Below, piece by piece: positions 31,910 through 54,417 of a stretch of 58,769 bases of DNA. A program made the translations under genes and the position numbers. This stretch comes from a virus: positions 1 through 58,769 of IMG/VR virus record IMGVR_UViG_3300006802_000107, one strand, 5' to 3'. The notes under the pieces were generated by a model. It saw only the letters and a list, made by a program, of their open reading frames with translations, had not been told where the DNA came from and did not search any database. Each line of letters opens with the position of its first letter. The first letter of the stretch is position 1.

Positions 31910-34012
31910 TCAGTATTTAACGATGGTATCTCGTGAAATTACCTTGATGGTCTTTGGCATGATTTTAAGTTGCGATTTGACCATACCTTTGTCTTCGGGG
32001 ATTTGCAGTGGTGCCTCAATGATGTAGTAGTCATCAATGATAAGCATCATACGCTCAGTGGTTCCCGAAGTGGTTGTCTTTTCAAAATTGATGCGTATTT
32101 GGTTGGTAGTAGTTCCGTCTTCACTTGAACTGAACTCAGTAGTGGAACGCATTTTGTGGTAAAAGAGCGGGTCATCCACACCAATTTCCATGGTCATCTC
32201 GTAGGAAGTCTGCCCTTCAACCATAAGAGAGGTGTTGCGAGAGCCACCAAATGGAACTTGACTTGTAGCACTGGTTTGACTGTTTTCACCGTTGATAACA
32301 TGGAATGCCTGCATACCTGTTTGGCCAGTGAGGGAGAAATTAAGCACCTGTGCGACTTGCACACCAGCCATGTTGATTGTACCGTTGTAAAACATGAATG
32401 GTTTTTGGGTCTTTGGCCCAATACCGCTTTGAAACCTTTTGATGTCCGTGTTAGCGGTATCATTGAACATACGATGGGAAGCATACCTTGAGGTGCTACC
32501 TTCCAAACGGGCAGTGTCCGTATAGCACAAAGCGGCGTTGAAGTTCACAGCCAAGCGAAGAGCGGCATCGTTGTCGGTCGTGAGGGTAAAGTCGGTGACC
32601 TTACATCCACGGAACACACGAGTCAACTCTTTGGAGTCTGTTGCAGTACCATCTACTGCTCCATCGTCTGTATCAACATCACGACGGCGTTGCGACACCT
32701 CAAGAGCAAAGGAGGGTTGGTGAGTATGTGTGAAAAGTAAGTGTGTTTGTGCATCTGCAATAACACCAGTGGATGAGACTGTGGGCGGGTTTGTATTGGG
32801 AGCATCATTAAAGTCAATGAATTGTACAGCCATGTTATCCCCGTGAGGGAAAAGAAGGGGTTCATCCAAGTAAACTTTGGTGCCATCCATACCGATGACA
32901 CGACGGACTTCACTACGCAATGCGGTGTCAAAACGAGTGTCCGTAAATGACCCATCCCATTGTAAAGCGGCATCCGATATATCTGCCTCGTGTGTTGTGG
33001 TCACAGGGACATAAGTTGTGTCCACAATGAGTACATAATGGTTAGCGGCCAAATTACCATGGTCGTCAGTGAGAGTGATAAACGACTGTCCTGCTTTTGT
33101 TGCACCGTCAAGCGTCGTGAAGTGATTTGCTTCGGGGTTTGCCACTGGGTGAGCCAATTCACCACCAAGGCAGTATTTGAGCCAACGAGCAGAGTGCATT
33201 GCTACTTCAAAAGAGCCACCTTCCGTAATCAGTTTACCGGGCACTTGCACGCTGGTGTCTCGTCCAAGACCAACAACATGGAACCGCTTCAAATCTACCT
33301 TGGTTTCGGGAACGGTAAGAGCGTTAGCGATACCAAGAAACTGGTCAGTCAATACTGATTCTTCCGCTACTCCACCCGTTTTAGACTCATTCATAGTTGT
33401 GTCAAATGGTGGAGTTTTGTAAGGTAGAATGTGAAGGTCAATAGCGGCGGCACTAAGAGTTGCACCTCCTGTTTTCATTGCTGGTGAAATTTTGAGAGTT
33501 CGCCCATCGTTCTCCACGATAGTAAAAACACCAGCAGTGTCGTTTGCATCAATAGTTGAGCCAGTATCAGTCCACTTGACTTGAGAACCCACAAGCATGT
33601 TTTTTGGGTAACGAAGTGCATTACTTAAGAAAGTCAATGTAGCACCCGAAACAGCACCACCTGTTGTGGAAGCGGATAATTCAAATTCTGTAGCCGAGGT
33701 TATGCTGGCTACCGTAGAAGAGGCTGGAATACCAGCACCACTTGATGTGACTGTCATCCCTACTCGGATTTGGGTACTGGCATCGGAAGCGTGTGTGATA
33801 GTTGGGTCATCGTTGTAAGCACCGCTTCCAAGAGTAAAAGAAGGTTTGAAGAGTACGGCGTTAGATTGTGCGGAAAATGTGATGGTGGTAAAATCGTTGC
33901 CTGCAACTGTGGCAATGGTCATGTTTGCATCGGTATTTGCGTTAATTGAAACACCTACTTCGGGAGCGAAAGAAACCTCCGCCAAATCGCCCTTGTACAC
34001 TGTTGATGGCAT
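31910..34012 (-). CDS. Putative major tail (tube) protein with extra beta modules
   Basis: A 700-residue, beta-rich protein between the tail-terminator-like and tape-measure-side genes, the normal place of the major tail protein. It opens with MPSTVYKGDLAEVSFAPEVG, has a repeated beta module at 65-127 shared with the giant gene, then VPGKLITEGGSFEVAMH (around 255), and ends with ITVKVISRDTIVKY-like strands. It is two to three times longer than a minimal tube protein, so it probably carries decoration domains. AGGTGA lies six bases before ATG 34012. Sheath protein is an alternative, but no separate tube gene is visible. Confidence 0.58.
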   Translation of the reverse strand: MPSTVYKGDLAEVSFAPEVGVSINANTDANMTIATVAGNDFTTITFSAQSNAVLFKPSFTLGSGAYNDDPTITHASDASTQIRVGMTVTSSGAGIPASSTVASITSATEFELSASTTGGAVSGATLTFLSNALRYPKNMLVGSQVKWTDTGSTIDANDTAGVFTIVENDGRTLKISPAMKTGGATLSAAAIDLHILPYKTPPFDTTMNESKTGGVAEESVLTDQFLGIANALTVPETKVDLKRFHVVGLGRDTSVQVPGKLITEGGSFEVAMHSARWLKYCLGGELAHPVANPEANHFTTLDGATKAGQSFITLTDDHGNLAANHYVLIVDTTYVPVTTTHEADISDAALQWDGSFTDTRFDTALRSEVRRVIGMDGTKVYLDEPLLFPHGDNMAVQFIDFNDAPNTNPPTVSSTGVIADAQTHLLFTHTHQPSFALEVSQRRRDVDTDDGAVDGTATDSKELTRVFRGCKVTDFTLTTDNDAALRLAVNFNAALCYTDTARLEGSTSRYASHRMFNDTANTDIKRFQSGIGPKTQKPFMFYNGTINMAGVQVAQVLNFSLTGQTGMQAFHVINGENSQTSATSQVPFGGSRNTSLMVEGQTSYEMTMEIGVDDPLFYHKMRSTTEFSSSEDGTTTNQIRINFEKTTTSGTTERMMLIIDDYYIIEAPLQIPEDKGMVKSQLKIMPKTIKVISRDTIVKY
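33633..33820 (-). repeat. Beta module copy 3 (in tail-tube gene)
   Basis: Encodes about residues 65-127: YNDDPTITHASDAST, VTSSGAGIPASSTV, ASITSATEFELSAST and TGGAVSGATLTF. It matches the two modules of the giant protein and shows that two different virion genes share one mobile domain. Confidence 0.85.
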
Positions 34013-39042: not shown

Positions 39043-40143
39043 TCACTTGAGGTCACGGATTGAGCCGTGTCCACCGAAGAAAGTCGTCCATAGTTCTCCC
39101 ATGGTGCGGTACATTCCTTCTTGTCCGAGGCGGTTGATAGCGAATGGGTCGCCAGTTTCAATACCGCTCTCAAAGTATTGGGTTGGAATTGCAGTGCTGA
39201 AGTACAAGTAATCCGTGTCAAGGAAGTACATACGGCTCAAAGTGTCCGTTTGAATGTCCTTGGATGGGATGATTGGGACACCGTTGTAGGTGGCCACAAT
39301 GAAACCTGCTTCAATACCGGGAACACCTTTCACACCGTTGTAGGTAGGGGTGACACGCTTCTCTTCCATAAACCGCTGTTGGCTTTGGAGGAGTTGTTGT
39401 AGGCGCATCAAGGTGTCGTATCCAGTAAGAATAACCTTGGGGTTTCCACCACGAGTCCAAATCTTTTGGAACAGGTCATCCAACTGGTCAAGGGACAAGT
39501 TGCGGTCAGTACCACTGTTTTCATTGTGCTCAGCGAGCGACCACGAGTTTGCACTGCGGTCAATGGAGTACATGTCTTCAGTTGAACCTGCGGAAGCACC
39601 AACGGTCACACGGTCAAGGGATTCAAAGTCGTTCCCTGCAACGGTGGCTTTGTCGGTCGTAAGCATCTTGTTCACATGCTCAGCGTGGTGCTTACCCATT
39701 TCTTCCTTGAGAATTGCACGAATGTCGCCCAATCCATCGTCCTTGTCGGACAGGAACATTGCGGTTTCGCTCATGTCAAAGGTGTGAACCACAGTCTTTG
39801 GCTTGGCGGCAATGTGCTGGAAGGTTGGTTTGGTGGTGTCGGGGAGCGTAGCGTTTTCTGCAACACCGCCGCCAACCGTGAAGGAAGGACGCTCGGTGAT
39901 GACTCGCCAACCACTGCGTTCCCAAGGTCGCTTGGGAAGGATGGAGAAGGCGTTGAACTCTTGGTTCAACTGGCTCCAAACCTTGCGTCCATAGATGGCT
40001 TGGTAAGTACCAGCCGTGGTGGACAGCATTGGAGCGTCAGCCTTGAGCAACTCGCTACCGGAGTAGGAGTATCCCATTGCGTTGCCTGCGCCGTAGTAGT
40101 ATCGTTCCATGTCAGTAATGTTTCGGATGTAGTCTCTTGCCAT
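39043..40143 (-). CDS. Major capsid protein, HK97-fold type
   Basis: At 366 residues it has the length and position (immediately after protease-scaffold) of an HK97-fold major capsid protein. The N-terminus is helical (about 1-40), followed by WSQLNQEFNAFSIL and KRPWERSGWRV, the E-loop/P-domain region. A spine-helix-like segment contains MGKHHAEHVNKML. The A-domain part includes GGNPKVILTGYDTLMRLQQLL and GVPIIPSKDIQ. The C-terminus is beta-rich. There is no cysteine. A GAGGTGA Shine-Dalgarno sits eight bases before ATG 40143; an AT-rich AAATAAAT lies just upstream but is a weak promoter candidate. Confidence 0.8.
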   Translation of the reverse strand: MARDYIRNITDMERYYYGAGNAMGYSYSGSELLKADAPMLSTTAGTYQAIYGRKVWSQLNQEFNAFSILPKRPWERSGWRVITERPSFTVGGGVAENATLPDTTKPTFQHIAAKPKTVVHTFDMSETAMFLSDKDDGLGDIRAILKEEMGKHHAEHVNKMLTTDKATVAGNDFESLDRVTVGASAGSTEDMYSIDRSANSWSLAEHNENSGTDRNLSLDQLDDLFQKIWTRGGNPKVILTGYDTLMRLQQLLQSQQRFMEEKRVTPTYNGVKGVPGIEAGFIVATYNGVPIIPSKDIQTDTLSRMYFLDTDYLYFSTAIPTQYFESGIETGDPFAINRLGQEGMYRTMGELWTTFFGGHGSIRDLK

Positions 40144-40170: not shown

Positions 40171-41550
40171 TCATTCCCCTCGCAGGGTGCGATGTGCAAG
40201 GGCGTGAACTTCGTCCCACCCCATGTTCGCCATGTCTTGCGTTGAGGGAATGTCAATGGATGCAACCGACTTTTGAATGGTCGTGCCTGCTCCTGCACCG
40301 ATGTTGTCAATGCGCTCGGAAAGAGCCTCAATGGACTTCACGATTTCCGTAAGTGGTGCTCGTGCGTCAAAGGCGGCTTTATCAGCCTCGGATTTAGCAA
40401 CTTCCATCTCGTTGTTGAAGCGAGCGGCAAAGTTGCCTTCAAGGTTGTTTCGGAAGTCTTGTTCCAAAGCGGCGGCTTTGTAAACTTCGTAAGCGGCTTC
40501 AAGGTCTGCATCACTCACATTTTCGGAGTTGAGGTAGCCCTTGGACAATGAGGCTGGCCCCATTGCTCCGGCAGGAGTTTTACCACCGGAAGCGGTGATA
40601 GCGTTGATTGCACCAGTGGAGGGAGAACCGTTCTCCTGTCCTCGGCCACGGACTTGACCACCGAAGTAGTCAGCACCGTCAACAGCGTCGGGGTTGTCAA
40701 AGCCACCAAGTTGGGCTTTCTCAAGTTGGTCAAAGTGGAGGCGAGCACCATCAGTGTCAACGCCAGCCGACTTGAGGGTGTTTTCCATCCAAGAAAGGTA
40801 TTCGGAGGAAATAACATCGGAGTATTCTCCTTTGTCCATGTACATCTTGTCATCGTCTTTCTTTTCGTCTTTCATTTCGTCACCTTCTTCTTTTTCGGGC
40901 TTTTTTTCTTCATCACTACCCTTACCCTTCATGTGTTCACGGAGTTGAGGAGGTAGTTCTCCCTTTTCCATGGCATCCAGTCGGCTTTCAAGTCGTGACA
41001 TAATTTCTGTCAAATCACTGTTTTCGTTTGTCATAGTGTTGTCCTCCTTCAAAATGCGGAACTGTGCTTCGGGGTTGATACCCTTTTCACAAATCGTCAC
41101 CTCATGCAACTCCATTTTTGAAATCTCTTGGTAGTCGCCTTTTTCCATGTCGGACTTTCGCACTCGCTTGAATGCTTGCCCTCCAATAGAAAATCCACGA
41201 AGGTTGCCCTTGCGGATTTCAGCGGCTACTTCACGAGCCTTCTCTATATCGTTGCGGAGTTTAACAACAACGAACAGCCCTGTGTCATCCGTTTCGGATT
41301 TCCACATGCGTCCGTTGGAATCAATGTACGAGTCAATGACTTCGCCAACTTGAATGTTGGAGTGAGCCAACTGTACATTGCGGTACTTTTCACCCTTCAT
41401 GAAGCCATCAAAGGCATCCTTTAGGGCGGAGCGAGTAATGAGGTCGCCTTGCTTATCTACAAGTTCAACTGATGCGTAGCCAGCAACAACCAAATCGTTA
41501 CCACTCTTGAGGAGAGTGATACCGTCAGTAGGTCGTTGAATGCTCAGCAT
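40171..41550 (-). CDS. Prohead protease fused to capsid scaffold (S78-type protease)
   Basis: The N-terminal ~165 residues are an HK97-type prohead protease: VVAGYASVELVDKQGD, catalytic His63 in QLAHSN, catalytic Ser121 in RGFSIGG, then ELHEVTIC. This is the herpesvirus-like serine protease fold that matures the capsid. From residue 173 on the chain is scaffold-like: a coiled helix, an acidic/Lys-rich disordered tract, and long helices ending in DMANMGWDEVHALAH. A strong internal Shine-Dalgarno precedes M173, so a separate scaffold of 287 residues is probably also made. It lies just before the capsid gene. A TATA-like CTTATACC about 25-30 bases upstream of the ATG is a weak promoter candidate. 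Confidence 0.88.
   Translation of the reverse strand: MLSIQRPTDGITLLKSGNDLVVAGYASVELVDKQGDLITRSALKDAFDGFMKGEKYRNVQLAHSNIQVGEVIDSYIDSNGRMWKSETDDTGLFVVVKLRNDIEKAREVAAEIRKGNLRGFSIGGQAFKRVRKSDMEKGDYQEISKMELHEVTICEKGINPEAQFRILKEDNTMTNENSDLTEIMSRLESRLDAMEKGELPPQLREHMKGKGSDEEKKPEKEEGDEMKDEKKDDDKMYMDKGEYSDVISSEYLSWMENTLKSAGVDTDGARLHFDQLEKAQLGGFDNPDAVDGADYFGGQVRGRGQENGSPSTGAINAITASGGKTPAGAMGPASLSKGYLNSENVSDADLEAAYEVYKAAALEQDFRNNLEGNFAARFNNEMEVAKSEADKAAFDARAPLTEIVKSIEALSERIDNIGAGAGTTIQKSVASIDIPSTQDMANMGWDEVHALAHRTLRGE
41032..41050 (-). promoter_or_regulatory. Internal ribosome binding site and in-frame scaffold start
   Basis: On the minus strand GAAGGAGGAC ends six bases before an ATG at 41034, with the GGAGG core eight bases from it. 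This ATG is residue 173 of the protease-scaffold gene, exactly at the boundary between protease domain and scaffold (followed by TNENSDLTEI). It would allow a free 287-residue scaffold, like lambda Nu3 inside the C protease gene. Confidence 0.65.
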
Positions 41551-41589: not shown

Positions 41590-44500
41590 TCAAGTCCGAG
41601 ACACCAACGGCTGGTCATTGTCGTAGTCTATAGAGAGTCTTTCACCCTCGTCAGTTTCTACTTGAATGTGATTCAGTCGCTCGGTTTTCTTCTCTTTCTT
41701 TTCATCAGTAATTTTTTTCTCACCGTCAAAATCCGGTAAGGTTGACTCGTGACGAAGTTGGGTTGGGCCACGGGGCGATTCCTGCGGTGTACCAACATCA
41801 ATACCCAGTCCCTTTGGCCCAGTCCATGTCATGCGCTCTTTGCTGATTTTATCCAAGGCTCGTACAATAACTTCCAATGCTTTCTTTGTTTGATTGGGTT
41901 TGAGAAGGCGATTTTCATCATCTTCTTCAAGAATACCCACGCTTTGCTCTTCAGTTCGTTTATCGCTCGGCTTCTTCGGCATTACATCACTTTCAGTTTG
42001 TTTACTGAGTAATCCTTTTACCATTAGTGGAGCAACCGACGACCAAAACGGCATAAGACTTTCAGCCAGCACCACAGGGTAATCGGTCTTGGTCAAATCA
42101 CCCATCGTGCTTTTTGGTGAATGCACACACCACACATCGCCTATTTCTTCCATGTTGTACACTACTGTGTCAACTCCCTTCAACACGATTTGAATCTGTG
42201 AGTCCGAGATTTCAATATCGTGAGGAATAAGAATTGGTGCGAATGCTTTGGTCATGAGGTCAAGAGATTCTGTGCTGGCCGCACCCTCTCCTTCACCCTC
42301 CCCTTCCAACTCCTTGACTTGTACATTGTACACAGGGCGGTTTTTGCGGTTTTTCTTGGAAATACCCGTGATGGATGCACGAACAATGTCGCCAACCTTG
42401 AACACCATACGCTGGTTATGAGCCGTACCCACATCCATGTAATGTTCACCATCATGCTCCACAGCCCTGTTTCCAAGCCCCTCAATCTCAAGGATAGGGC
42501 CAGCACCCAACTGATAGGTGTACGGGCCTTTGCCACGACGGTCAAGGATGATGAAGTTGAAGTCTCGGCTGTCACGGTAAACAATCCACTTTGGATGTCG
42601 TCGCTCTCCACGCATGTAGGTGGATTTGTTGTCTCGCAACAAAATGTTGTCGTGGTCGTCTTTGAGGTTCTTTACAGCGTCGGCCAGTCCCTCATCGTCT
42701 GTCATACGAGTATCGTGTGGGCCGGGTACAATCACAGGCTCTTGACTGTCAAACTGTGAGCGTAGAATTTTCAACCGCTCAAACAACTGCATTTCACCCA
42801 CATTGGTATCGTCGTAATTGATAATGTCAATGATGTTCAACTCTTCTTCACCAAGAATAGCGTCCAGCGTATAGTTCTTGTCGTTCATTTTTTCAAGAGC
42901 CTCTTTCGTGGCTTTGCGTAGCCCCTTCTTACGACCGTTTTCATCATACGCCGTAATCTCGTCATCACTGCGTACAATGATAATTCGCTTCCCATCATAC
43001 CACTTACTTACAACCCACGAGCCGCTGAAACCACGAAGGTGTTCAAGGTCGGCCAAATCAAAAATGCGGTGCATAGGGCGAACAGCAGGACTCCATTTCG
43101 CATCGTCGCTCTTGCTCAACAACACATCCGGGTCAAGTAGAGAGGTGATGAGTTCGGTCATCTCACTTGCCGCTACCGTAGTTGGAATCTCGCTTGCTGT
43201 TTCTGCTGTCTCCATGTTCATGCTTTGGTGAGGATTGTCGGGGTACTGAGGTGGTGGTGCATTTGCATAGACTTGTTGCGCTACTTCTTTTCCGTGAATC
43301 ATAGCGGTCAAATCCTCCGGCACAGAATGATACAACCCTGTGCCTACATTTGAACCGATGTGAATTGTACCGTCGTCGCCAAACTCAGCACCAAGTGTAG
43401 GTGTTGCTTCATACCCATGGTGCCACGCACCGCTGTCAAAGTTATCCGTCAACCCTGCGTGTGCGGGCGAAGGAATACCCAGTGGATACTGAGACATGCC
43501 TGCTGTTTCAGGAATTTCCAAGTCGGGTGTGAAGACACCTTCCTCTTCTTCAAGTACACGAGGGTCAAAGTGAATAATCGTGTCAAGGTGATTCTTGGTG
43601 TCGTTTGTTTTACGGGATTTTGATTGACTACCAAAGCCCTTTGCACCGTGAATATCACCTTTGACGGCACCAATACCAGCGGCTTTCATTGAGTCTTTGA
43701 ATTGCTGTGGGTTAAGTTTCATACCCATGGCTCGTGGAATACCGTGAGAAAGATGTCCACCCCATGCTTTTATGTCAGTTTGTTGTGCAAAGTGGTTAAT
43801 GGCTTGATGATACCCGTTTTCTCGTGCGTGGCGATAGAACGCCTCATGGTCGTCCAACTCCTCTTCGGGCTTGTTCATCATCTCTTCGTCGGTGAAATGA
43901 TTGAGGTCAAGCCCGTCAATGTTCGGGATTTTACCACTGAGAAGAATGTTCTTAATTGTAGAAACTTGTAACGGCGCACCTCTTTCACCCACCATATCAA
44001 TGAGTTCTTGGGCTTTCACTTTTGCAACAGGAGTTCGTTGGATTCCAAGTTTGTCCAACAGTTTGTCAGCATTTTCATCACCCTCAACCATTATACCGTC
44101 TGTGGACAAATGATTAGCGATAGTAGCGTGGAATGGATTTTGTGCCGCAGGGTCGGTGTCTCGTACAGAAGCCTGTAATCCATAATTGGTTGAAGAAACA
44201 CCGTGTACACTGTGAGGAACAGACACAATGTAGCGTTGAGCGTCACGCATCAGTTGATGGGTGTTTGCGATAAACTTCTCCGGCTCGTCGGGATTGAAAG
44301 CATCGGGGTCATGCTCAAGGTATTTTGGTAGAAGAACATCTCGTGCAACCTCAGCAATGGTTTGTCGGTGGCCACCAAACAATTGCTCCATACGAGTGGC
44401 ATCAAGTTTCCACATTGTGTTTTTACTCTTCTTTTGTGTGCTTTGCTGTACCTTTTCCAATTGTTGAGTCGTATCGTTGATTTCAGCCATCAACGGTTGC

Positions 44501-47376
44501 AATTCTTCAATGGGTGCGCCAGTGGTTTGCTTTTCAGTCAACTCTTGATTTAATTCTTCAAGCATTGTTGTGAGTTCGGATTCTTGTTGCGAAGCGGGTA
44601 ACATACCGCCGAATTGAAGCAAACGAGAAACGGCATCCTTTTCGTCAGCCGCCATTGTGGTTTTTGTTTTCTGTGTCTTTTTCTTCGCTTGCAGTTCCTC
44701 AGTCATGGTTTCCGTCATGCTTTGAAGAGAAGAAAGCAACTTCTGTTCATCAAACTCACCAAGACCTCGGCCCAACAAAGCAGTGTTTAATTCGGGATGC
44801 TTATCTGTAACGACACCGGGTGCCATCGGGAGAGTGTTTCTACCGTGCATAAGGTACTCAAGAATCTCCTTTGGGTCTTGTGTACCCAGTATTTTTGACG
44901 CTTGAGTAATGGCCGTCATAGCGTGATTCATATCGGGATTGGTCAACACTTGATTCTTCAACGCATTGAACGAAAAGCCACTACCACCGCCCCATCGCAT
45001 AAAATCAATGAAGTGTTCTTTGCTCTCCCCACCACTGAATGCCTCATCTCCACGAAGGAAGTCTTGAACTTTCATCAGTGATTTTTGTGCTGGTTGATGA
45101 GGGTGATTCATACGCCCGCCAAGCGTTTCAAGGAAGTGAGCCAGTTGTGCGTTCTTGTGCATATTGCTGTCCGAAGGAGATGCGCCGTAGGATGTGAAGG
45201 CACCCACATGATAGGTGGGAATAATTGTGTGTGGATATGTCAACGGTTTGAGATGGGTGCCAAACCTGTCCTTACGCTCTTTGTCCGTCATGTGGCGAAT
45301 CGTGTATTCGTAATCGGGGTTGAGTGTCGTTTTGTGTTCTGTGTAGTTGTTCTTGCCGGTTGAACCGTCCCGGTACGCTCGTTTTTTGGAATGCCCTACG
45401 GGAGAAAGCAAGTTTTGTAGCAACTCTTTTTGGTTGAAGTATGAAAAGCCCTTACCAGTAGAAACAAATTGCTGTGTGCTTGTGTTTACCTTTTTCATTT
45501 TTTCGCCAAACTCACCAATCAACTTTGTTTTTAATGGCATGAAGTGATGAGCGAGCGTTGTGTTATCGGGATTGGCATTGATGTAATTTGCACCAGCATC
45601 GCTTAGTTCTGTGAATGGCGAAAGACCGTCCTCATCAGCATGTGTGGCGTGAAGGATGTCATGGTAAGTTGCAAGCGTTATACCTGCTCCGCCCGTTTTT
45701 GCAAAGGCTGAGTCCCAAAAGCGACCGGGGCCGTAAGTGAAACCGTCACTGTGGTTTCGCCAGTAATTCGGTTTTTCCTCTGTTGGATGAGGGCCGTGTG
45801 GGGAAGTAAAAAAGGCCCGATGATTGCGAGCATCCTTGATACCAGCATGAAGTGAAGAGTTCGCCTTAGCCATGGATTCAATGTCGTCAATCAAGTCAGC
45901 GTTGACAATTGGTTCTTCCAATTTACCGTGAATTGGATGGTCGGTCATCAACTCCCGTGTCTTAGGGTCGTAGCCAGCCAAATAAAGCAAATCAGCCTTG
46001 CTCATTCGCACATCGTCAAGACTTCGCTTTCTTCCCTTTACTTTGAAGTGGCTTGCCATTGCATCTTTCATTTCGTCTTGGTCAAGTTCTCTCATTGGGT
46101 TCTTGTCCACATAAAGGCGTGGTAGAAACTTGTGATGCCCCGATATACCGTAGTTGTCTCGGATGCGTTCAAGAATAATTTCTGAGAGTGAATGACCATC
46201 AAATTCATCCATAGGCTCGTGAGCAAATCTACCCATAGCCTGTTGCAAAAACATGTTGCTTTCACCAGCAATGTAGTCGTTGTCATTGTTTTCTTGATGG
46301 TAGTGTGCATTTCGCCCCATATGTGTCATTGGACGCATAGCCCAATTCATTTCGGGAGTCATACGCATGAGGGCGTTGTATTTGAGGCGAGCAGAAGGAA
46401 ACTTTTGTCCGTTAGGTAGCGAAATCAAATCATGGTCGTCAAGACCCTTTTCACCGATATGCTCCATGATGGCTGTGCGTTCTTCGGGGTCAAACCATTC
46501 AAGGCCAAGCATGTAGCCAAGGTGCCCAAGCCGTGTTGGGTGTTCTTCATACTTGTCGCTGAGCATCATGTTGCTATCGTCATCAGCCTCCCACATGGCC
46601 GCTCGGTCAGCAAAGTGTTCTTTGCGAAGTTGCTCTTTCATCTCAGCGTTGTCCATACCTTCAGCCAGTAATTCCTCTTGACGATTCTTGTTCCGCTTTA
46701 ACCAACGGAAATAATCTCGCTCGTAGAGGTCATGCTGGTGATGAAGAAGTGTGCCGTTTGGACGGGTATCACCAAGAATGTTTACCTTCTTTCCTCCTTT
46801 TTGCTGAAACCCACCGACAAGAGGATGGTCTTTACCGAGAGTATCAAAGAATTGCTTTTCCATTTCCTTCTCGGCTTCACCATGCCCACCCAGTGCCCAA
46901 CTTCGTAGCATCTCTACATAGGCAGGCATCCCCGACACTGCGTTGGTACGAAGAAGCGGGTGGTTGACTTCGTGAAACGGGAAGTGGTGCCGCTGGTATG
47001 GATGTGTGCCGTCCTTTGGTTGGTAGTACGGCCACATTGCATGGCCGTGCTTTTTGTTTACAGGTGATTGAAGCCCGTCTTTCCATACATGGTTGGTCGG
47101 CTCGCCATGTGAGTGTTGAAGAGCGAACAAGTAGCCCATACCTTCGGGATATTTGTAATCGGTTTCACCGACTTTTACTGCATCTTTTTCTGCTTGTTCT
47201 TTATTCTTGTAAATCATCTCAGCCGTGGCTTTGAGAGATTTGAACAACGGTTCGCTTGGAGTCGTGTCAAGTGCTTCGTAGGCAAGAATGTATTCAGCCG
47301 CCGAATAAACAAGGTCAAGACCATCATCCAGTGATTTAAGCAGTTGGTTGCTACACACAAAGAAATGGTCGTTCAC
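41590..47376 (-). CDS. Giant 1928-residue head-module protein with DNA-ligase-like domain
   Basis: Most of the chain (1-1430) is an unrecognised, His/Met/Asp-rich region with a Gln/Glu/Lys coiled coil near 880-1010. From about 1435 to 1700 the order of an ATP-dependent DNA ligase is visible: SKWYDGKR near 1457-1464 (motif I is normally KxDGxR), LDAILGEEELNIIDI near 1500-1514 (motif III), DNILLRDNKSTYMRGE near 1574-1590 (motif IV), then an OB-like segment VGDIVRASITGISKK near 1660-1675. The Lys of motif I is one residue too far from DG, so adenylation may be lost. It starts at GTG 47376, with GGTGA just upstream. The place between the portal and protease genes suggests a capsid-internal or packaging-associated protein. 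Confidence 0.6.
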   Translation of the reverse strand: MNDHFFVCSNQLLKSLDDGLDLVYSAAEYILAYEALDTTPSEPLFKSLKATAEMIYKNKEQAEKDAVKVGETDYKYPEGMGYLFALQHSHGEPTNHVWKDGLQSPVNKKHGHAMWPYYQPKDGTHPYQRHHFPFHEVNHPLLRTNAVSGMPAYVEMLRSWALGGHGEAEKEMEKQFFDTLGKDHPLVGGFQQKGGKKVNILGDTRPNGTLLHHQHDLYERDYFRWLKRNKNRQEELLAEGMDNAEMKEQLRKEHFADRAAMWEADDDSNMMLSDKYEEHPTRLGHLGYMLGLEWFDPEERTAIMEHIGEKGLDDHDLISLPNGQKFPSARLKYNALMRMTPEMNWAMRPMTHMGRNAHYHQENNDNDYIAGESNMFLQQAMGRFAHEPMDEFDGHSLSEIILERIRDNYGISGHHKFLPRLYVDKNPMRELDQDEMKDAMASHFKVKGRKRSLDDVRMSKADLLYLAGYDPKTRELMTDHPIHGKLEEPIVNADLIDDIESMAKANSSLHAGIKDARNHRAFFTSPHGPHPTEEKPNYWRNHSDGFTYGPGRFWDSAFAKTGGAGITLATYHDILHATHADEDGLSPFTELSDAGANYINANPDNTTLAHHFMPLKTKLIGEFGEKMKKVNTSTQQFVSTGKGFSYFNQKELLQNLLSPVGHSKKRAYRDGSTGKNNYTEHKTTLNPDYEYTIRHMTDKERKDRFGTHLKPLTYPHTIIPTYHVGAFTSYGASPSDSNMHKNAQLAHFLETLGGRMNHPHQPAQKSLMKVQDFLRGDEAFSGGESKEHFIDFMRWGGGSGFSFNALKNQVLTNPDMNHAMTAITQASKILGTQDPKEILEYLMHGRNTLPMAPGVVTDKHPELNTALLGRGLGEFDEQKLLSSLQSMTETMTEELQAKKKTQKTKTTMAADEKDAVSRLLQFGGMLPASQQESELTTMLEELNQELTEKQTTGAPIEELQPLMAEINDTTQQLEKVQQSTQKKSKNTMWKLDATRMEQLFGGHRQTIAEVARDVLLPKYLEHDPDAFNPDEPEKFIANTHQLMRDAQRYIVSVPHSVHGVSSTNYGLQASVRDTDPAAQNPFHATIANHLSTDGIMVEGDENADKLLDKLGIQRTPVAKVKAQELIDMVGERGAPLQVSTIKNILLSGKIPNIDGLDLNHFTDEEMMNKPEEELDDHEAFYRHARENGYHQAINHFAQQTDIKAWGGHLSHGIPRAMGMKLNPQQFKDSMKAAGIGAVKGDIHGAKGFGSQSKSRKTNDTKNHLDTIIHFDPRVLEEEEGVFTPDLEIPETAGMSQYPLGIPSPAHAGLTDNFDSGAWHHGYEATPTLGAEFGDDGTIHIGSNVGTGLYHSVPEDLTAMIHGKEVAQQVYANAPPPQYPDNPHQSMNMETAETASEIPTTVAASEMTELITSLLDPDVLLSKSDDAKWSPAVRPMHRIFDLADLEHLRGFSGSWVVSKWYDGKRIIIVRSDDEITAYDENGRKKGLRKATKEALEKMNDKNYTLDAILGEEELNIIDIINYDDTNVGEMQLFERLKILRSQFDSQEPVIVPGPHDTRMTDDEGLADAVKNLKDDHDNILLRDNKSTYMRGERRHPKWIVYRDSRDFNFIILDRRGKGPYTYQLGAGPILEIEGLGNRAVEHDGEHYMDVGTAHNQRMVFKVGDIVRASITGISKKNRKNRPVYNVQVKELEGEGEGEGAASTESLDLMTKAFAPILIPHDIEISDSQIQIVLKGVDTVVYNMEEIGDVWCVHSPKSTMGDLTKTDYPVVLAESLMPFWSSVAPLMVKGLLSKQTESDVMPKKPSDKRTEEQSVGILEEDDENRLLKPNQTKKALEVIVRALDKISKERMTWTGPKGLGIDVGTPQESPRGPTQLRHESTLPDFDGEKKITDEKKEKKTERLNHIQVETDEGERLSIDYDNDQPLVSRT

Positions 47377-47535: not shown

Positions 47536-48050
47536 CAACGCCCACCCGCCGTGTCTTCTCGCTCAGCCCCTCGTCCCTCATGAGGATTCATACGAGAGCC
47601 GAGGCGTTGAGTGTCAATGGCTTCTTTGGGCTTCTTTTTCTTGGGAGCATCCTCAGTCTCAATGGTGCGTCCGTTAGTGGTAAAGTAACCACTTTTGGTT
47701 TGTCCACCCGATTCAGCGTGGAAAGAAGGATTGACATCGGTGATTTTCTCAGCCTTGAAGCCCGGTTCGGCTTTGGCCATTTTACCATGAGACTTGTTGC
47801 ATTGTGCCTTTTGCTTTTCCGAGCATTCCGAATACTTCTTACCGAAGTTCTTCATACAGTATTTATCTTTGGTAGCCATGTCAGCCTTAGCCATTTTGCC
47901 ACCGCAACCCATTTTCATACATTGGCCCATTTTGTTGAGTTTACCACCTTTACACTTTGGACAATCTTCACCTTTTAGCAATTCGTCAATTCGTTGTTCA
48001 AGTTCAATGGCCTTTGTCAAATATCCGTTTTCTACTGGTCGTGGTTTCAT
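47535..48050 (-). CDS. Lys/Cys-rich protein with multiple zinc knuckles
   Basis: A protein of 171 residues from ATG 48050, which has a GGAGGG Shine-Dalgarno six to seven bases upstream and overlaps the previous stop (ATGA); the longer form from 48098 is less likely. An N-terminal helix (TKAIELEQRIDELL) is followed by CPKCKGGKLNKMGQCMKMGC, a second Cys group (YCMKNF, ECSEKQKAQC) and a basic, disordered tail. The composition suggests a zinc-binding, nucleic-acid- or scaffold-binding protein. I know no family for it. Confidence 0.6.
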   Translation of the reverse strand: MKPRPVENGYLTKAIELEQRIDELLKGEDCPKCKGGKLNKMGQCMKMGCGGKMAKADMATKDKYCMKNFGKKYSECSEKQKAQCNKSHGKMAKAEPGFKAEKITDVNPSFHAESGGQTKSGYFTTNGRTIETEDAPKKKKPKEAIDTQRLGSRMNPHEGRGAEREDTAGGR

Positions 48051-48388
48051 TGTACACCCTCCTTTGCACCTAAAGCCAATTCGTGAATGTCTTCCCACGA
48101 CATGGCATGAATGTCCTCATTACTCATTGTGCCTATTTCGGGTGAACTCTTGAGAAGAGCACCACCTTCAAGAGCCATATCTCCCCGGAAAGGGTCAACT
48201 TGTAAGTCATTTGTGAAAGGAGTAGAGACATTGACAAGTCCCATTTTACGAAGAAGTTGTTGTGGGTTGTTGATGAGTCTTTTGAGAGCATCATTTTCAG
48301 CCTTAAGAATTGAAAGATTGGAATCCATAGACTCCATCTTATTGATGAGAACACCAATCAATTGTTCAGCATCGGATGATTCACTCAT
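48047..48388 (-). CDS. Coiled-coil protein sharing the scaffold's C-terminal motif
   Basis: A 113-residue protein with an N-terminal coiled coil (about 8-42), a short middle, and a C-terminus DIHAMSWEDIHELA. That ending matches the scaffold C-terminus DMANMGWDEVHALA in six of fourteen positions, with conservative changes at four more. The coiled coil plus shared tail suggests a second assembly factor binding the same partner, for example the capsid or portal protein. The function is inferred. Confidence 0.55.
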   Translation of the reverse strand: MSESSDAEQLIGVLINKMESMDSNLSILKAENDALKRLINNPQQLLRKMGLVNVSTPFTNDLQVDPFRGDMALEGGALLKSSPEIGTMSNEDIHAMSWEDIHELALGAKEGVQ

Positions 48389-48794: not shown

Positions 48795-50576
48795 TTACTG
48801 TCCACGGGGGCGACGAGCATCCAAAAGTGCATTACTCAAGTTTTGTTGCATAGATGGTGCTGGCCCTCTTTGTTGTACATTCGTAAATGGTGCACCGCTA
48901 CCCATACTTCCTCGTCGTTGAGGAGTCGCTGGCCCACGGTTTCGTAATCCCACGCCTTGACCTCCGGGTTGTGGAGGTGGCATCACCTGTTGAGCGAGTT
49001 GTGGAGGCATTTGTGGGCCTCTTCCTTGCATCATAGGCATACCCGGAGGCATACCCGGAGGCATACCGGGAGGCATACCGGGAGGCATACCGGGAGGCAT
49101 ACCTCCTCCCATTGGTGGAGCACCACCCGGCGGAGCACCTTGTTGTGGTGGTTGAGGTTCGGGACGCTTGTAAGTGAAACGGATGTCTCGGTTGGCTGTG
49201 TCTTCAATGAGTTCGGGCATAAAGCCAAGTTGCGCCATGCGTTGTGCGACATTGAGTTCTTCCGAATCACGGCGTAGGCGTGTAATCTCATCTTCTTCTT
49301 CGTTGGGATAGAGCGTAAGTTTCCAATCATTGATGTCCATTTGTTTGAGAAGACGAGGGAACAGAACTTCTGTGTACACTTTTTGTCCAAACTCAACGGC
49401 TCGGTTTGTCACGAGAATCTGCATACCTTCATTGTTAAGACCGCCTTTTTTACCAGCATCCATCATGAAAACCGACGAAACACCGTAGAAAGCGGCAATG
49501 CGATTACGAATTTCATCACGCACTGCAATGTATTGCATTTCTTCCAGTGTGTCCATGAACTTAACCCAATTAACGCCACCACGACCTGTAGATGATTCAA
49601 TGCCAACCTTGGGCACATAGTGAGGGTCACGCTCCATTTTTTCGTCCACAGCCTTCCAAAATGACTTCATGGACTCCAAGTTATCTGTGGTGACTGATAC
49701 GATACCCTTTGGCATCCGTCGCTTTTGATATGCTGTGTAAATGTAATTGTCCATAGCCGTGAGTGTCATGGCTTGTCGCCACATGGTGTTGACAGGAGAG
49801 CGACCATACAGTTTAGACGCTTTGTACTTACTCACATGAAGAATTTCGCCTTCAACGAAGTATTGGGTTTTTCCGCTACCTGCCATGTTTACATAATGCA
49901 CATCGTGGAGGTCAGCACCGCACACTTCACATGTATCATCCTCAGCGTGTGTTTTGATTTGGTCACGATGAATTAAACATGTTTTGTAGCGTCCACCACG
50001 CACACCTCGCTTATCAGCAACGATACGCATGAAAATAGGGTCGCCACGCATGATTTCTTTAACACGGTAAAAAGCCACTTCTTTGCTCTTAGGGTCAATA
50101 AAATACTCCTTGACTAAAATCAAGAAAGCATCATCTACGATGTTGAGGTCAGCCTCTATTTCATTGAGTACAGTAATGAACGATTGCTCCATGCTGTTCT
50201 CTTGTTTAAGGAGCCACTTGGCGTAAGTCAATTCATCTATATCGGGTTTTCTTACAGCCCCGCCGCACTCAGCACATGTTTCCACTTCACTTTGATACTC
50301 CTCATCACACACCGTACATTTGCGTGCAAATTTCTTCTCCCAGTAGTAGCCACGACGAAACATCTCTTGGCGCAACTTGGCAAGCACTGTACGAAGAATC
50401 AGCGACTCGTTGCTTACAGCATACAACGCAGGGATGGTGATACCCTGCGCCATCACAGGCTCTTGAATACCACTTGTCCACAGCGGCATGGTTGGAGTGG
50501 GAGATTCTTTGCGACGGAAAGGCGTACCCAACGCTGAAAGAAATCGTGAAATTCTACCTTGTTCTTCAGCCATCAC
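48795..50576 (-). CDS. Portal protein with two inserted zinc knuckle sites
   Basis: The head-tail portal ring through which DNA is packaged. The portal core is clear: RTVLAKLRQEMFRRGYYW, ASKLYGRSPVNTMWRQAM, VNWVKFMDTLEEMQYIAVRD and AAFYGVSSVFM. Two metal sites are inserted: CTVC at 87-90 with CAEC at 101-104, and C200/H203 with CEVC at 216-219. I do not know portals with such sites as a common feature. The C-terminus is Pro/Gly/Met/Gln-rich, with a PGMP tandem repeat. The start is GTG 50576 or ATG 50573, both overlapping the upstream stop. At 593 residues it is somewhat long. Confidence 0.88.
   Translation of the reverse strand: MMAEEQGRISRFLSALGTPFRRKESPTPTMPLWTSGIQEPVMAQGITIPALYAVSNESLILRTVLAKLRQEMFRRGYYWEKKFARKCTVCDEEYQSEVETCAECGGAVRKPDIDELTYAKWLLKQENSMEQSFITVLNEIEADLNIVDDAFLILVKEYFIDPKSKEVAFYRVKEIMRGDPIFMRIVADKRGVRGGRYKTCLIHRDQIKTHAEDDTCEVCGADLHDVHYVNMAGSGKTQYFVEGEILHVSKYKASKLYGRSPVNTMWRQAMTLTAMDNYIYTAYQKRRMPKGIVSVTTDNLESMKSFWKAVDEKMERDPHYVPKVGIESSTGRGGVNWVKFMDTLEEMQYIAVRDEIRNRIAAFYGVSSVFMMDAGKKGGLNNEGMQILVTNRAVEFGQKVYTEVLFPRLLKQMDINDWKLTLYPNEEEDEITRLRRDSEELNVAQRMAQLGFMPELIEDTANRDIRFTYKRPEPQPPQQGAPPGGAPPMGGGMPPGMPPGMPPGMPPGMPPGMPMMQGRGPQMPPQLAQQVMPPPQPGGQGVGLRNRGPATPQRRGSMGSGAPFTNVQQRGPAPSMQQNLSNALLDARRPRGQ
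49036..49103 (-). repeat. 12-bp tandem repeat encoding PGMP units in the portal
   Basis: The plus-strand unit GGCATACCSGGA is repeated 5.7 times, giving a (PGMP)n tract near the portal C-terminus. The units differ only at one C/G position, as expected for replication slippage. Copy number may vary between related viruses. Confidence 0.9.
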
Positions 50577-51889
50577 AATCCCTCAGCGTATGTACCTATC
50601 GTGTCAGCATTTAAGCCCCACTTATCAAGAAGAGAAGCGGCTTTGTTTTTATGTTCTTTCCAATTGTTGTAGGTAACCAATTGATACAACTCAGTCTTTC
50701 GCATGGTGTCCTTCTCTTCAATGTAATTCAACACCGCTTTGGCTTGTAGTGATTTGAGTTTAAGGTGTGGAAGCACCCCTTTGAGTATTTCACGAATGTC
50801 ATTCTTTGATGAGAAAATAAGGCGATGAACGGGCTTAATGGTATTTTTTGCCAACTTTTGGTCGGACACAAGGCGACCACAACCAATCATTTTTTGCAAT
50901 TCTTCACAATGGCTGAAACCATTGTCGCCACTGGCTACAATCGTCACACGAGGGTCGCCACGCTCGGAGATGAAAATGCTTCCATCGGCATCAACAAAAC
51001 CAGCGGTGTATGCCCACATGTCTTTGATGATGAAACCATCAGTGCCTTGTTTGACAAAAGTTTGTCGTGCGCTACCTTTGTACACATCAACCTCTTCACC
51101 ATACATTTTGAGTAAAGAACTCATTTTACCGGCTGTCATGGATTTGTTAAGGGTTCCATAGCCTCTACGCACAATTTCACGACTTCCGAGAGCACCTTCC
51201 TTTTGTAAAAGGTCGGATGCGAAATGCAATGCGGCTACATCTGTCTTTTTTAACCCATCAATTTGATGCAGTGTGTTCTTCCACATCTTTTGGGCTTCTT
51301 TCTTCATGTCGTTTGCATCAACCCAGTTTTGCTGGTCGTCAGTGTTCCAATCCAACTTGTCGTTAAGGTGTTGAAGCACTGTAATTGCTTTGAGGTATTG
51401 TTGACATGATTTTTGTAAACTGATACCACGGGATTCACCAAATTTACGCAATGCTTTGAGTGAGCGGTCATCAAGTCCGATATTGCGTATGACATCCTCC
51501 ATACCATCAGCCCATGAAAGAGATTTGATGGTCAAATCAACCTCCATGGCTTTTACACGGCGTATGTCTTTGATGATGCCGTCATATTCATCCCGAAACG
51601 ATTTGTCGTGTCGGCGCATTTTGCGACACATGCGAATAATAGTGTTGGCATCGGTACCGTATTTACTTTCAAACCAGCCATCTCCGTTTTTTGCAAACCG
51701 TGATACTGCGTTGTCTTCTTTGATGACTGTATTTAAAGTCTTAAGGGGTACACTTTGTGGCTGAAAATGGGGATGTTGAGCAATACTTTTCAAAACAGTA
51801 TTGGAAAAATCATCTGCGACACGCAACGGTACATCGTACTCGTCACCGATAAACAGACTCCCCCACATATTGACCACTGGATTGACCAT
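50573..51889 (-). CDS. Helical morphogenesis protein with C-terminal LAGLIDADG domain
   Basis: A 438-residue protein directly upstream of the portal gene. The first ~290 residues are helical and unrecognised, with two short Trp/Asp-rich segments. From 291 a LAGLIDADG-type domain follows: YTAGFVDADGSI (294-305), then VTIVASGDNGFSHCEELQKM, a GCGRL beta turn, and a second helix block LPHLKLKSLQAKAVLNYI. One motif copy is seen, as in single-motif homing endonucleases that work as dimers. It ends at residue 438 without intein splicing residues. The catalytic Asp is kept. It could be a homing nuclease, a domesticated DNA-binding part, or a packaging-site cutter. Confidence 0.72.
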   Translation of the reverse strand: MVNPVVNMWGSLFIGDEYDVPLRVADDFSNTVLKSIAQHPHFQPQSVPLKTLNTVIKEDNAVSRFAKNGDGWFESKYGTDANTIIRMCRKMRRHDKSFRDEYDGIIKDIRRVKAMEVDLTIKSLSWADGMEDVIRNIGLDDRSLKALRKFGESRGISLQKSCQQYLKAITVLQHLNDKLDWNTDDQQNWVDANDMKKEAQKMWKNTLHQIDGLKKTDVAALHFASDLLQKEGALGSREIVRRGYGTLNKSMTAGKMSSLLKMYGEEVDVYKGSARQTFVKQGTDGFIIKDMWAYTAGFVDADGSIFISERGDPRVTIVASGDNGFSHCEELQKMIGCGRLVSDQKLAKNTIKPVHRLIFSSKNDIREILKGVLPHLKLKSLQAKAVLNYIEEKDTMRKTELYQLVTYNNWKEHKNKAASLLDKWGLNADTIGTYAEGL

Positions 51890-52926: not shown

Positions 52927-54417
52927 TCATGGAATCATCCACCCATCAGCATGATTGTGTTCTTTTGAGCGGTGTGGTTTACCACGAATCCACTCATCAA
53001 AGCCGGGTAACACATCGTCAAGCAGGACAACCGAGCCTTTGAACTCCTTGGTAGCCCAGTTTGCCAGTGCAAGTGACATAGCCAAGTCATCGTGAGTACC
53101 CACGCTTTCCAATTTACCATTTTTCTGCATACCGAAACGGTTGAGTTCAGTTTCCAATTTGTGAGTAAACTCACGGCTTCGTTTGTCACCGTATGGAGTT
53201 TGAATGCGGCCTTGCTCAAAAGCCATCAAAAGGGACATGAACAGGCTTTCCTTGCGTGTGCGTGTTGTCATGAAAGTCTTGATTGGAATGTCTTGGCGCA
53301 TTTCAAGGAGTTCGGCTTGGAACATACGCTGGAAGTTGTTGCCTTCCAACTCAATGAGGTCGGGTTGGAAACGGTTGTTAAGCATCATGATTTGATTTTT
53401 CTGCGCCAGTCCCGACATACCACGCTCGTGAACGATGCCAACGATTTGTTTGACATCCTCACCCGGAAGCATACGCATGACGGTCATAGCGGTGAAGTCA
53501 GCGTTTTTATCCGATGCAATGGCTGTGTCCCACCCAATGAAATGTTGACCGAAAACTCCCATTGGTTCTCCTTCAGCATCGTACTCGGTATCAGCACGGT
53601 CAAGCAACACGAGGTCTTTGTTGCGTGCCTTTTCCAAGATGTCGTTAGGAAACATACTGGCAACATCGTGGATAGGCTCACACAGGTACTCACGAGAAAA
53701 CTGAATGGCTGGCATGGTGAGTCGCCGCTCGTTAAGTGAGTCTAAATCCCATCGCTCCGGCCACAGGGCTTCGCCTTCTTTGTTGATAGCGGGGTATGTT
53801 TCCACTTGGAATGTTTCAGTTTGTTCCAACTGAGAGTACAAGTCGTTGTACGAAAACGGCGTACCCACCATCATAAGGCGACCCGTGTGGTGGAGAACAG
53901 GGAGCAGGACACCGTAGAACCAGTCTGCGGCACGCTGTAGTTCGGTACCCGTCGTACCCCACAGAATATCGTCGCACAACACAACATCCGGGTGGAAACC
54001 ACGAGTACCACCGCCGACCGACTTGGCCATGATACGGCTACCATTGCTGAACTCAAAGTAGGTCTTGCGCCATGGTCGGCCTTCGGGGATGAGGTAGCGA
54101 ATGGAGGGCGTGTTCTCAATGTTTTGACGGATGAAACGCATGTGTTCAAGCGTCTGTTCCAACGAGTGCGAGAAAATCATGATGTGCTTACCCGGCTGGA
54201 AAGCGGCAATCCACAGGGCGTAGGACATGAAGAACACGGACTTGCCGTGGTCACGAGATGCTTTCACGCAGTAGTATCGGTTGTCAGCCAGTCCTTTGTC
54301 CCACGACTTGTGATGGCCCGAATAATCAAAGCCCAAAATCTCCTTGAAGAAGTATTCAAACGACTTTGCAGACATCTTTCTGTCCATGTCGTGAATAAAC
54401 CCCTCCATGTCGCTCAT
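52927..54417 (-). CDS. terL: Terminase large subunit (packaging ATPase-nuclease)
   Basis: The DNA packaging motor and headful or end-cutting nuclease. ATPase motifs: Walker A ASRDHGKS (53-60), Walker B VVLCDD (145-150), coupling motif VGTPFSYND (184-192). Nuclease residues: D297 in FIGWDTAIASD, E356/E358 in LIELEG, and D443/D444 in THDDLAMSLALA, in the RNase H-like order. 496 residues is a normal length. GGTGA lies just before ATG 54417. No small terminase subunit is recognised; the three unknown genes upstream and the small basic zinc proteins downstream are candidates. Confidence 0.94.
   Translation of the reverse strand: MSDMEGFIHDMDRKMSAKSFEYFFKEILGFDYSGHHKSWDKGLADNRYYCVKASRDHGKSVFFMSYALWIAAFQPGKHIMIFSHSLEQTLEHMRFIRQNIENTPSIRYLIPEGRPWRKTYFEFSNGSRIMAKSVGGGTRGFHPDVVLCDDILWGTTGTELQRAADWFYGVLLPVLHHTGRLMMVGTPFSYNDLYSQLEQTETFQVETYPAINKEGEALWPERWDLDSLNERRLTMPAIQFSREYLCEPIHDVASMFPNDILEKARNKDLVLLDRADTEYDAEGEPMGVFGQHFIGWDTAIASDKNADFTAMTVMRMLPGEDVKQIVGIVHERGMSGLAQKNQIMMLNNRFQPDLIELEGNNFQRMFQAELLEMRQDIPIKTFMTTRTRKESLFMSLLMAFEQGRIQTPYGDKRSREFTHKLETELNRFGMQKNGKLESVGTHDDLAMSLALANWATKEFKGSVVLLDDVLPGFDEWIRGKPHRSKEHNHADGWMIP

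What the first reader, a model, noticed from the sequence alone, without database searches (positions are those of the whole stretch)
41590..47376. DNA-ligase-like domain embedded in a giant head-module protein
Residues about 1435-1700 of a 1928-residue protein between portal and protease genes show the order of an ATP-dependent ligase adenylation domain plus OB fold (SKWYDGKR, LDAILGEEEL, DNILLRDNKSTYMRGE, then VGDIVRASITGI). Ligases are normally free enzymes in the replication block. Here the domain is fused to a huge His-rich protein in the morphogenesis block. Either the virion carries a nick-sealing activity, perhaps repairing or circularising DNA after packaging or ejection, or a dead ligase domain was recruited to hold DNA ends or nicks. 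In motif I the Lys is one residue further from DG than in KxDGxR, which favours altered or lost adenylation.
Basis: partly seen in the sequence, partly recalled or inferred. Interest (0 to 1): 0.82.

Follow-up and report, generated by a model that had tools for sequence, protein, structure and literature searches.

The report
Dead ligase domain in capsid-module giant
A very large protein encoded among the capsid genes of a marine virus, probably one that infects archaea, contains a DNA-ligase-shaped domain that has lost its catalytic residues but is strongly preserved, so what has been listed as a replication ligase in these viruses is probably a repurposed head-assembly part.

Summary
The ligase-like domain is real. 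Residues about 1423-1700 of the 1928-aa ORF match PF01068, archaeal ligases by profile (E 1.1e-7) and Pyrococcus DNA ligase by predicted fold (Z 22.2, 266 residues, 3.0 A). The fusion is no accident: all 80 contigs kept from a portal search (the best 80 of 330 matches) hold a 1737-1987 aa ORF with this domain between portal and protease/MCP. By sequence it is catalytically dead: in 98 distinct cores the nucleophile column is W, H, L, Y, Q, M or F, never Lys; the motif III Glu and first motif V Lys are absent; the OB fold is lost in 12. Yet the domain is the most constrained part of the giant (dN/dS 0.014-0.044 in six pairs). A free ligase with intact motifs was found in 1 of 41 virus records. 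Published accounts list a magrovirus DNA ligase, one beside the prohead protease: probably this domain. Nick sealing is not supported. Best reading: a repurposed ligase fold used as a binding or structural module of a giant head protein; ligand and presence in virions are untested.

The parts
41590..47376 (-). giant head-module protein, 1928 aa, carrying the ligase-like domain
   Evidence: 122 ORFs of at least 1700 aa with the domain among 138 ORFs then held, 52 after redundancy removal, a few cut by contig ends
43792..47376 (-). N-terminal region, residues 1-1195, mostly helical, no recognised relative
   Evidence: AlphaFold mean pLDDT 76.4; no Foldseek match at E <= 0.001 in PDB or BFVD; no Pfam or PHROG family in more than 2 of 37 members at E <= 0.1, one member matching phrog_701 'virion structural protein' at 2.9e-4
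42562..43110 (-). ligase-like nucleotidyltransferase core, residues about 1423-1605
   Evidence: PF01068; hhalign; structure matches
42985..43008 (-). motif I region SKWYDGKR, residues 1457-1464; W1459 aligns with the catalytic Lys of ligases
42856..42864 (-). motif III equivalent, residues 1505-1507 (D-A-I opposite E-G-E of the archaeal ligases)
42574..42651 (-). motif IV-V block, residues 1576-1601; D1582, S1585, T1586, Y1587, G1590, E1591, H1594, P1595, K1596, W1597 identical in 98 of 98 cores
   Evidence: the script kept only cores containing STY followed by M or I, which dropped 1 of 293 ORFs
42298..42564 (-). OB-fold-like beta domain, residues about 1605-1693; missing in 12 of 98 distinct relatives
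41593..42279 (-). C-terminal region, residues 1700-1928: a second small beta part and a mostly low-confidence tail
40171..41550 (-). head maturation protease (context)
   Evidence: TIGR01543 1.6e-12, 47.8 bits, below its 59-bit cut-off
39043..40143 (-). major capsid protein (context)
48795..50576 (-). portal protein (context)
52927..54417 (-). terminase large subunit (context)

Best explanation
The domain is a repurposed, catalytically dead ATP-dependent DNA ligase core (nucleotidyltransferase plus OB fold) fused into a giant protein of the head module. Shown here: the ligase fold (predicted structure and profiles), loss of the catalytic residues in all related sequences examined, the constant place between portal and protease, and strong purifying selection. 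Inferred: the giant is made with the capsid proteins and built into the prohead or mature head as an internal or minor head protein, and the ligase-like domain works there as a binding or structural module, its work centred on the near-invariant motif IV-V loop (RDxxSTYMxGExxHPKW), without adenylation or nick sealing. I think a protein partner in the head is somewhat more likely than DNA as the ligand, because the OB fold is dispensable in one clade and the core is acidic on average. The DNA-gripping and injected-effector rivals below share the dead-domain core with this reading and differ in what it binds or where.
For: Fold: Foldseek E 2.5e-13 to Thermococcus ligase 4eq5; VIA Z 22.2, 266 residues, 3.0 A to Pyrococcus ligase 2cfm, in a model whose ten-residue blocks over protein residues about 1440-1700 have pLDDT 73-88 except one of 60. 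Sequence: 47 of 47 match PF01068; hhalign E 1.1e-7. Dead: nucleophile column W 75, H 7, L 6, Y 4, Q 3, M 2, F 1, K 0 of 98; motif III Glu 0 of 98; motif IV Lys column R 96, C 1, K 1; first motif V Lys 0 of 98, second K in 1 (columns assigned). Context: same gene order in 24 of 24 loci chosen from about 150 held, as far as each contig reaches; ligase-bearing giant between portal and protease/MCP in 80 of 80 contigs of the portal scan, and in 60 of 76 new loci of the MCP scan, these 60 being all whose span is complete. Selection: dN/dS 0.014-0.044 in the domain in 6 pairs, against 0.060-0.151 in residues 1-1399 in the 5 pairs that could be computed; the domain is the best-conserved stretch of the protein. 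No PF01068 match outside the giant's frame in 40 of 41 records.
Against: I saw no virion proteomics for this group, so presence in the particle is inference from gene order. Residues 1-1195 have no recognisable fold to support a head role, apart from one weak PHROG 'virion structural protein' match in 1 of 37 members. Part of the invariant loop, protein residues 1589-1594, has pLDDT under 50. Loss of catalysis is read from sequence; no assay and no residue-by-residue superposition was available. 17 of 98 keep a Glu at the motif IV Glu column, and G1462 and R1464 of motif I are invariant, so some ligand binding in the old pocket is possible.
Confidence: 0.7

Rival explanations
1. The dead ligase core still grips DNA: it holds genome ends or nicks inside the head, or rides in with the DNA and shields its ends from host nucleases.
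For: Ligase fold with OB fold in the window and in 86 of 98 distinct relatives; G and R of motif I invariant. P1 Dar proteins, DarB of about 2000 aa among them, are described as internal and co-ejected with DNA (PMC12810830, passages), and DarA and DarB as binding the transferred DNA (PMC5512222, passages).
Against: OB fold missing in 12 of 98; Pfam reports no ligase N-terminal DNA-binding domain for the protein at E <= 10, and the structural match to 2cfm begins at its residue 185 (residues 1196-1299 were in neither model). Net charge of the core averages -5 (range -19 to +8) in 98 sequences, against +0.9 (-5 to +9) in 16 of 24 archaeal ligases that could be measured and +7 for a free ligase of a related virus; the stretches compared are not quite the same.
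Confidence: 0.25
2. It is an active ligase, with the Lys one place further from DG acting as nucleophile, that seals or circularises virion DNA.
For: The window and 73 of 98 distinct cores have a Lys at that place; no other ligase was found in 40 of 41 records.
Against: That Lys is I, V, T, A, L, M or D in 25 of 98; motif III Glu and first motif V Lys absent in 98 of 98. One virus has the giant and a separate free ligase with intact motifs (L345).
Confidence: 0.03
3. The similarity is convergent or a chance beta domain, not a ligase relative.
For: The single-sequence Pfam score is below the curated cut-off, NCBIfam ligase models match only at E 0.028 and 0.096, and hhalign against the single free ligase L345 finds nothing (Prob 0.8).
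Against: Profile-to-profile E 1.1e-7, profile against PDB 3.3e-5 to 4eq5, predicted structure E 2.5e-13 with DNA ligases filling the top rows.
Confidence: 0.03
4. The giant is an effector delivered into the host with the DNA, and the ligase-like domain acts there, for example by competing for nicks or binding a host factor.
For: In related haloviruses the same slot holds large proteins with enzyme domains: HVTV-1 gp115 (1313 aa) matches Zeta_toxin 3.3e-20 and ADPrib_exo_Tox 1.4e-8, and HCTV-1 has a 1210-aa Zeta_toxin protein. Polyvalent proteins are described as injected with the DNA (PMC5512222, passages).
Against: No detectable similarity of the giant to HVTV-1 gp113 or gp115 (single sequences on one side); no effector domain recognised elsewhere in the giant.
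Confidence: 0.2

Closest known systems
Archaeal ATP-dependent DNA ligase (Pyrococcus 2cfm, Thermococcus 4eq5), PF01068
   Same: Nucleotidyltransferase core and OB fold in the same order; the stretch after motif III and the STYxxG...W loop align.
   Different: Catalytic Lys, motif III Glu and motif V Lys replaced; no N-terminal DNA-binding domain reported; a gap of 32 positions after the motif III region in hhalign; embedded in a protein of about 1900 aa.
Phage P1 DarB and other polyvalent or internal head proteins
   Same: Very large protein tied to the head, with domains of nucleic-acid enzymes (PMC5512222, PMC12810830, passages).
   Different: DarB carries methylase and helicase domains; no direct comparison with DarB was made here, and virion location is not shown for this giant.
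Druskaviridae HVTV-1 gp113 and gp115
   Same: Large ORFs in the equivalent slot between portal and protease of related viruses.
   Different: Zeta-toxin and ADP-ribosyltransferase domains in gp115 instead of a ligase-like one; no profile similarity.
Snurportin-1 cap-binding domain (recalled: a nucleotidyltransferase-like fold without catalysis that binds a cap)
   Same: A nucleotidyltransferase fold used for binding only; 10 of 47 relatives show a weak PF21974 match, best E 0.026.
   Different: The match is weak; the structural precedent is recalled and was not in the passages of PMC2736588 that I read.

Membership tests
ATP-dependent DNA ligase (catalytic) | nucleotidyltransferase core homologous to PF01068 | tested here: met
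ATP-dependent DNA ligase (catalytic) | motif I Lys nucleophile (KxDG) | tested here: not met
   0 of 98 distinct cores have Lys at the aligned column; alignment
ATP-dependent DNA ligase (catalytic) | motif III Glu | tested here: not met
   I, V, T or M in 98 of 98
ATP-dependent DNA ligase (catalytic) | motif IV Glu and Lys | tested here: not met
   window D and R; Glu column E in 17 of 98; Lys column R in 96, C in 1, K in 1 of 98
ATP-dependent DNA ligase (catalytic) | motif V Lys pair (KxK) | tested here: not met
   first Lys 0 of 98, second K in 1 of 98
ATP-dependent DNA ligase (catalytic) | OB fold after the core | tested here: met
   present in the window's model; missing in 12 of 98 distinct relatives
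ATP-dependent DNA ligase (catalytic) | ligation or adenylation activity | not testable with these tools
   needs an assay
Structural protein of the virion head | gene in the head module, conserved in order | tested here: met
Structural protein of the virion head | found in purified particles | not testable with these tools
   needs proteomics
Polyvalent effector (DarB-like) | effector domains of that class by family search | tested here: inconclusive
   none among the Pfam, PHROG and NCBIfam matches of the giant; PADLOC gave only weak matches, HEAT-ARM_XIII 0.0022 and PDC-S53 0.003; no comparison with DarB itself
Magrovirales (magroviruses of Poseidoniales) | HK97 MCP and portal related to Druskaviridae, chaperonin, PolB | tested here: inconclusive
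   chaperonin and Druskaviridae-like portal and MCP in the window; PolB in 9 of 10 related records, not sought in the window; no named magrovirus record could be opened

The most novel reading that the evidence does not exclude
A whole lineage of marine archaeal viruses has domesticated a DNA ligase into a non-catalytic, near-invariant component of the virion head that holds the packaged genome's end or mates the head to the packaging machine; a 'pseudo-ligase' as a head protein would be a new use of this fold.
Probability: 0.2. Interest if true: 0.8.

Novelty: new variant of a known kind. Interest (0 to 1): 0.6.

Why it matters
The ICTV profiles of two magrovirus families list an ATP-dependent DNA ligase among the replication genes and infer little, no or only partial dependence on host replication (PMC10768690 and PMC12999244, whole texts). 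If the gene meant is this domain, as the neighbouring prohead protease in PMC7318539 suggests, many of these viruses lack a recognisable working ligase and would need the host's. It also offers an example of an enzyme fold turned into a structural or binding part of a virus head, with a strictly conserved loop that can be tested.

Tried and rejected
Active virion ligase with a displaced Lys: rejected on conservation. Chance similarity: rejected on profile and structure. A Trp-stacking pocket as general mechanism: an early reading, since W1459 was W in 52 of 52, dropped when more distant clades showed H, L, Y, Q, M and F there.

Homology of the giant to HVTV-1 gp113 or gp115: not detected; those were single sequences, so this is weak. 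Known fold for residues 1-1195: none at E <= 0.001; VIA rows mostly covered a helical hairpin near 924-985. One long model may hide matches of its parts, and residues 1196-1299 were not modelled. A capsid-tail motif in the giant like the MxW[DE][DE]xH of two neighbours: not found. Cellular genomes: 24 stretches matched a pattern in genome contigs, none encoding a relative of the domain. PHROGs: no family for the window's giant. Annotated phage records: tblastn of the domain gave 3 weak matches at E 0.2-0.5, all in annotated phage DNA ligases.

Result against the picture that these viruses lack a ligase: one related record (contig of L235) has a free ligase with KFDGVR, FDGELY, an EG motif and KVK (L345).

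Rows dropped or limits: of 293 ORFs with the domain, one (L039, a broken frame) lacked a complete core by the script's patterns, and the other 292, many fetched more than once from the same contig, gave 98 distinct cores. Redundancy removal took 122 ORFs to 52. The 80 contigs have different names but were not dereplicated. L019 and L039 hold the giant in broken frames. Eight of 24 archaeal ligases could not be measured for charge.

Full report
OBSERVATION. The ORF at 41590-47376 (minus strand, 1928 aa, GTG start) is present as described. It lies between portal and head maturation protease, with three small ORFs between portal and giant. The window is a 58,769-base virus record. It also carries a Cpn60-family chaperonin and a large terminase, and its portal and MCP find, in the phage collection, 11 records each, headed by Haloarcula viruses of the Druskaviridae (portal 28%, MCP 34-36%). 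With published descriptions of magroviruses as Druskaviridae-related viruses, many with chaperonins (PMC10768690 whole text; PMC5332604 passages), I infer a magrovirus of Poseidoniales; no named magrovirus record could be opened to confirm it.

THE DOMAIN IS A LIGASE RELATIVE. On the single protein PF01068 gives E 2.5e-4 and 21.2 bits, below its cut-off; in the six-frame search it passes (28.3 bits with its neighbours in the frame). Of 47 sequences scanned, the window's among them, 47 match PF01068 at E <= 1 (best 3.5e-7). A profile of them finds Thermococcus ligase 4eq5 in the PDB at 3.3e-5. hhalign of 18 viral sequences (13 after its filter) against 24 archaeal ligases, taken from 28 loci, gives Prob 94.3, E 1.1e-7 over 251 columns. 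The AlphaFold model of residues 1300-1928, built with 47 sequences, has mean pLDDT 62.5 overall; over residues about 1440-1700 the ten-residue blocks have 73-88 except one of 60, and residues 1589-1594 are under 50. Foldseek ranks DNA ligases first (4eq5, 2.5e-13), and VIA-align gives Z 22.2, 266 residues, 3.0 A, 15% identity to Pyrococcus ligase 2cfm over core and OB fold.

IT IS CATALYTICALLY DEAD BY SEQUENCE. In the alignments the residue before Y-D-G in the window, W1459, takes the place of the ligase Lys. I gathered 293 ORFs with the domain; 292 have a complete core, the exception being the broken frame of L039, and they give 98 distinct cores. At the nucleophile column these have W 75, H 7, L 6, Y 4, Q 3, M 2, F 1 and K 0; no gaps occur in the eight motif I columns. 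The motif III Glu column has I, V, T or M in all 98. The motif IV Glu column is E in 17; the motif IV Lys column is R in 96, C in 1 and K in 1. The first motif V Lys is never Lys, the second once. Residues identical in all 98 include G1462 and R1464 of motif I and D1582, S1585, T1586, Y1587, G1590, E1591, H1594, P1595, K1596 and W1597 of the motif IV-V loop; cores were recognised by the patterns HRIF and STYM/STYI, which cost only the one ORF named. In 12 of the 98 (L233, L235, L240, L246, L248, L250, L256, L257, L258, L262, L267, L268) the OB part is missing and the sequence runs on directly (two further rows flagged, L091 and L095, are an earlier HPKW in the protein, not a loss).

IT IS CONSTANT AND CONSTRAINED. 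The gene order TerL, ORF 50573, portal, three small ORFs, giant, protease, MCP holds in 24 of 24 loci that I chose from about 150 then held, as far as each contig reaches. To avoid selecting on the domain itself I searched with portal and MCP profiles. In the portal scan, which kept the best 80 of 330 matches, 80 of 80 contigs have a complete portal-to-protease/MCP span and all 80 have a ligase-bearing ORF of 1737-1987 aa in it. In the MCP scan, best 80 of 558, 60 of 76 new loci have a complete span and all 60 have it. The two scans overlap in contigs, and more distant viruses are not covered. The ligase-like part is the best-conserved stretch of the giant. Between the window and six relatives its dN/dS is 0.014-0.044, against 0.060-0.151 for residues 1-1399 in the five pairs where it could be computed and 0.068-0.128 after residue 1700; several dS values exceed 1 and are rough. 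A dead domain under such constraint most likely has a function.

IS THERE ANOTHER LIGASE? PF01068 was searched in 41 virus records: the window's, 14, 12 and 14. Two of them (G007, G008) gave no match at E <= 0.001. In the rest the matches lie in frames of 1803-1982 aa, that is in the giant, with one exception: the 102-kb contig of L235 also has a free ligase of 379 aa, PF01068 2.6e-19 plus an OB domain, with KFDGVR, FDGELY, an EG motif and KVK. This serves as a positive control that an intact ligase is seen. PF01653 (NAD ligase) gave no match in 11 records at E <= 0.01 and in 9 at E <= 0.1, two records being in both, and PF04679 none in 12 at E <= 0.001. Records may be fragments, and some are the same virus; 16 of the 41 exceed 80 kb.

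RELATION TO THE LITERATURE. Both ICTV profiles list an ATP-dependent DNA ligase among replication genes (PMC10768690, PMC12999244, whole texts). PMC10160649 says almost all vOTUs encode DNA ligase and used Pfam hmmsearch among other tools (passages). [quoted passage not shown] I infer that the published ligase is, in most of these viruses, this domain. The primary papers (Philosof 2017, Zhou 2023, Prabhu 2025) were not read; look-ups for the first and last failed, the second was not tried. Three searches for a dead ligase or ligase-like head protein in phages or archaeal viruses gave no paper, within the open-licence library only.

HOW IT MOST LIKELY WORKS. Shown: fold, loss of catalytic residues, context, constraint. 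Inferred: expression with the head genes and incorporation in the prohead or head; a binding or structural role centred on the motif IV-V loop. Whether the partner is protein or DNA is open. Against a ligase-like grip on nicks are the OB loss in 12 of 98, the lack of a reported ligase N-terminal DNA-binding domain and the mean core charge of -5, against +0.9 for 16 archaeal ligases and +7 for the free viral ligase, over roughly matching stretches. In the related HVTV-1 the same slot holds a 1313-aa protein with Zeta_toxin and ADP-ribosyltransferase matches, and P1 DarB is described as an internal, co-ejected protein of about 2000 aa (PMC12810830 and PMC5512222, passages), so delivery into the host remains a serious rival. 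The N-terminal 1195 residues match no solved or viral structure at E <= 0.001, and family searches give only scattered weak matches, one to a PHROG 'virion structural protein' in 1 of 37 members.

VERDICT.

Noticed in passing
window 10373-28372 (-): A 5999-aa ORF; it contains stretches of about 70 residues 54-59% identical to ORF 31910-34012, which has a weak Phage_tube_2 match.
   Followed up: no
window 40171-41550 and 48047-48388 (-): The protease ORF and a small ORF after the portal share a C-terminal motif MxW[DE][DE]xH; possibly a common capsid- or scaffold-binding tail.
   Followed up: partly
L155:8623-12564 (HVTV-1 gp115): In a halovirus the slot between portal and protease holds a 1313-aa protein with Zeta_toxin and ADP-ribosyltransferase matches; HCTV-1 has a 1210-aa Zeta_toxin protein there.
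   Followed up: partly
L345:1222-2361: A free 379-aa ligase with intact catalytic motifs in a 102-kb relative that also carries the giant pseudo-ligase.
   Followed up: yes
L233, L235, L240, L246, L248, L250, L256, L257, L258, L262, L267, L268: Giants whose ligase-like core is kept but whose OB part is missing.
   Followed up: partly
window 50573-51889 (-): ORF beside the portal with an HNH endonuclease match in its C-terminal third (PHROG 2e-7).
   Followed up: no
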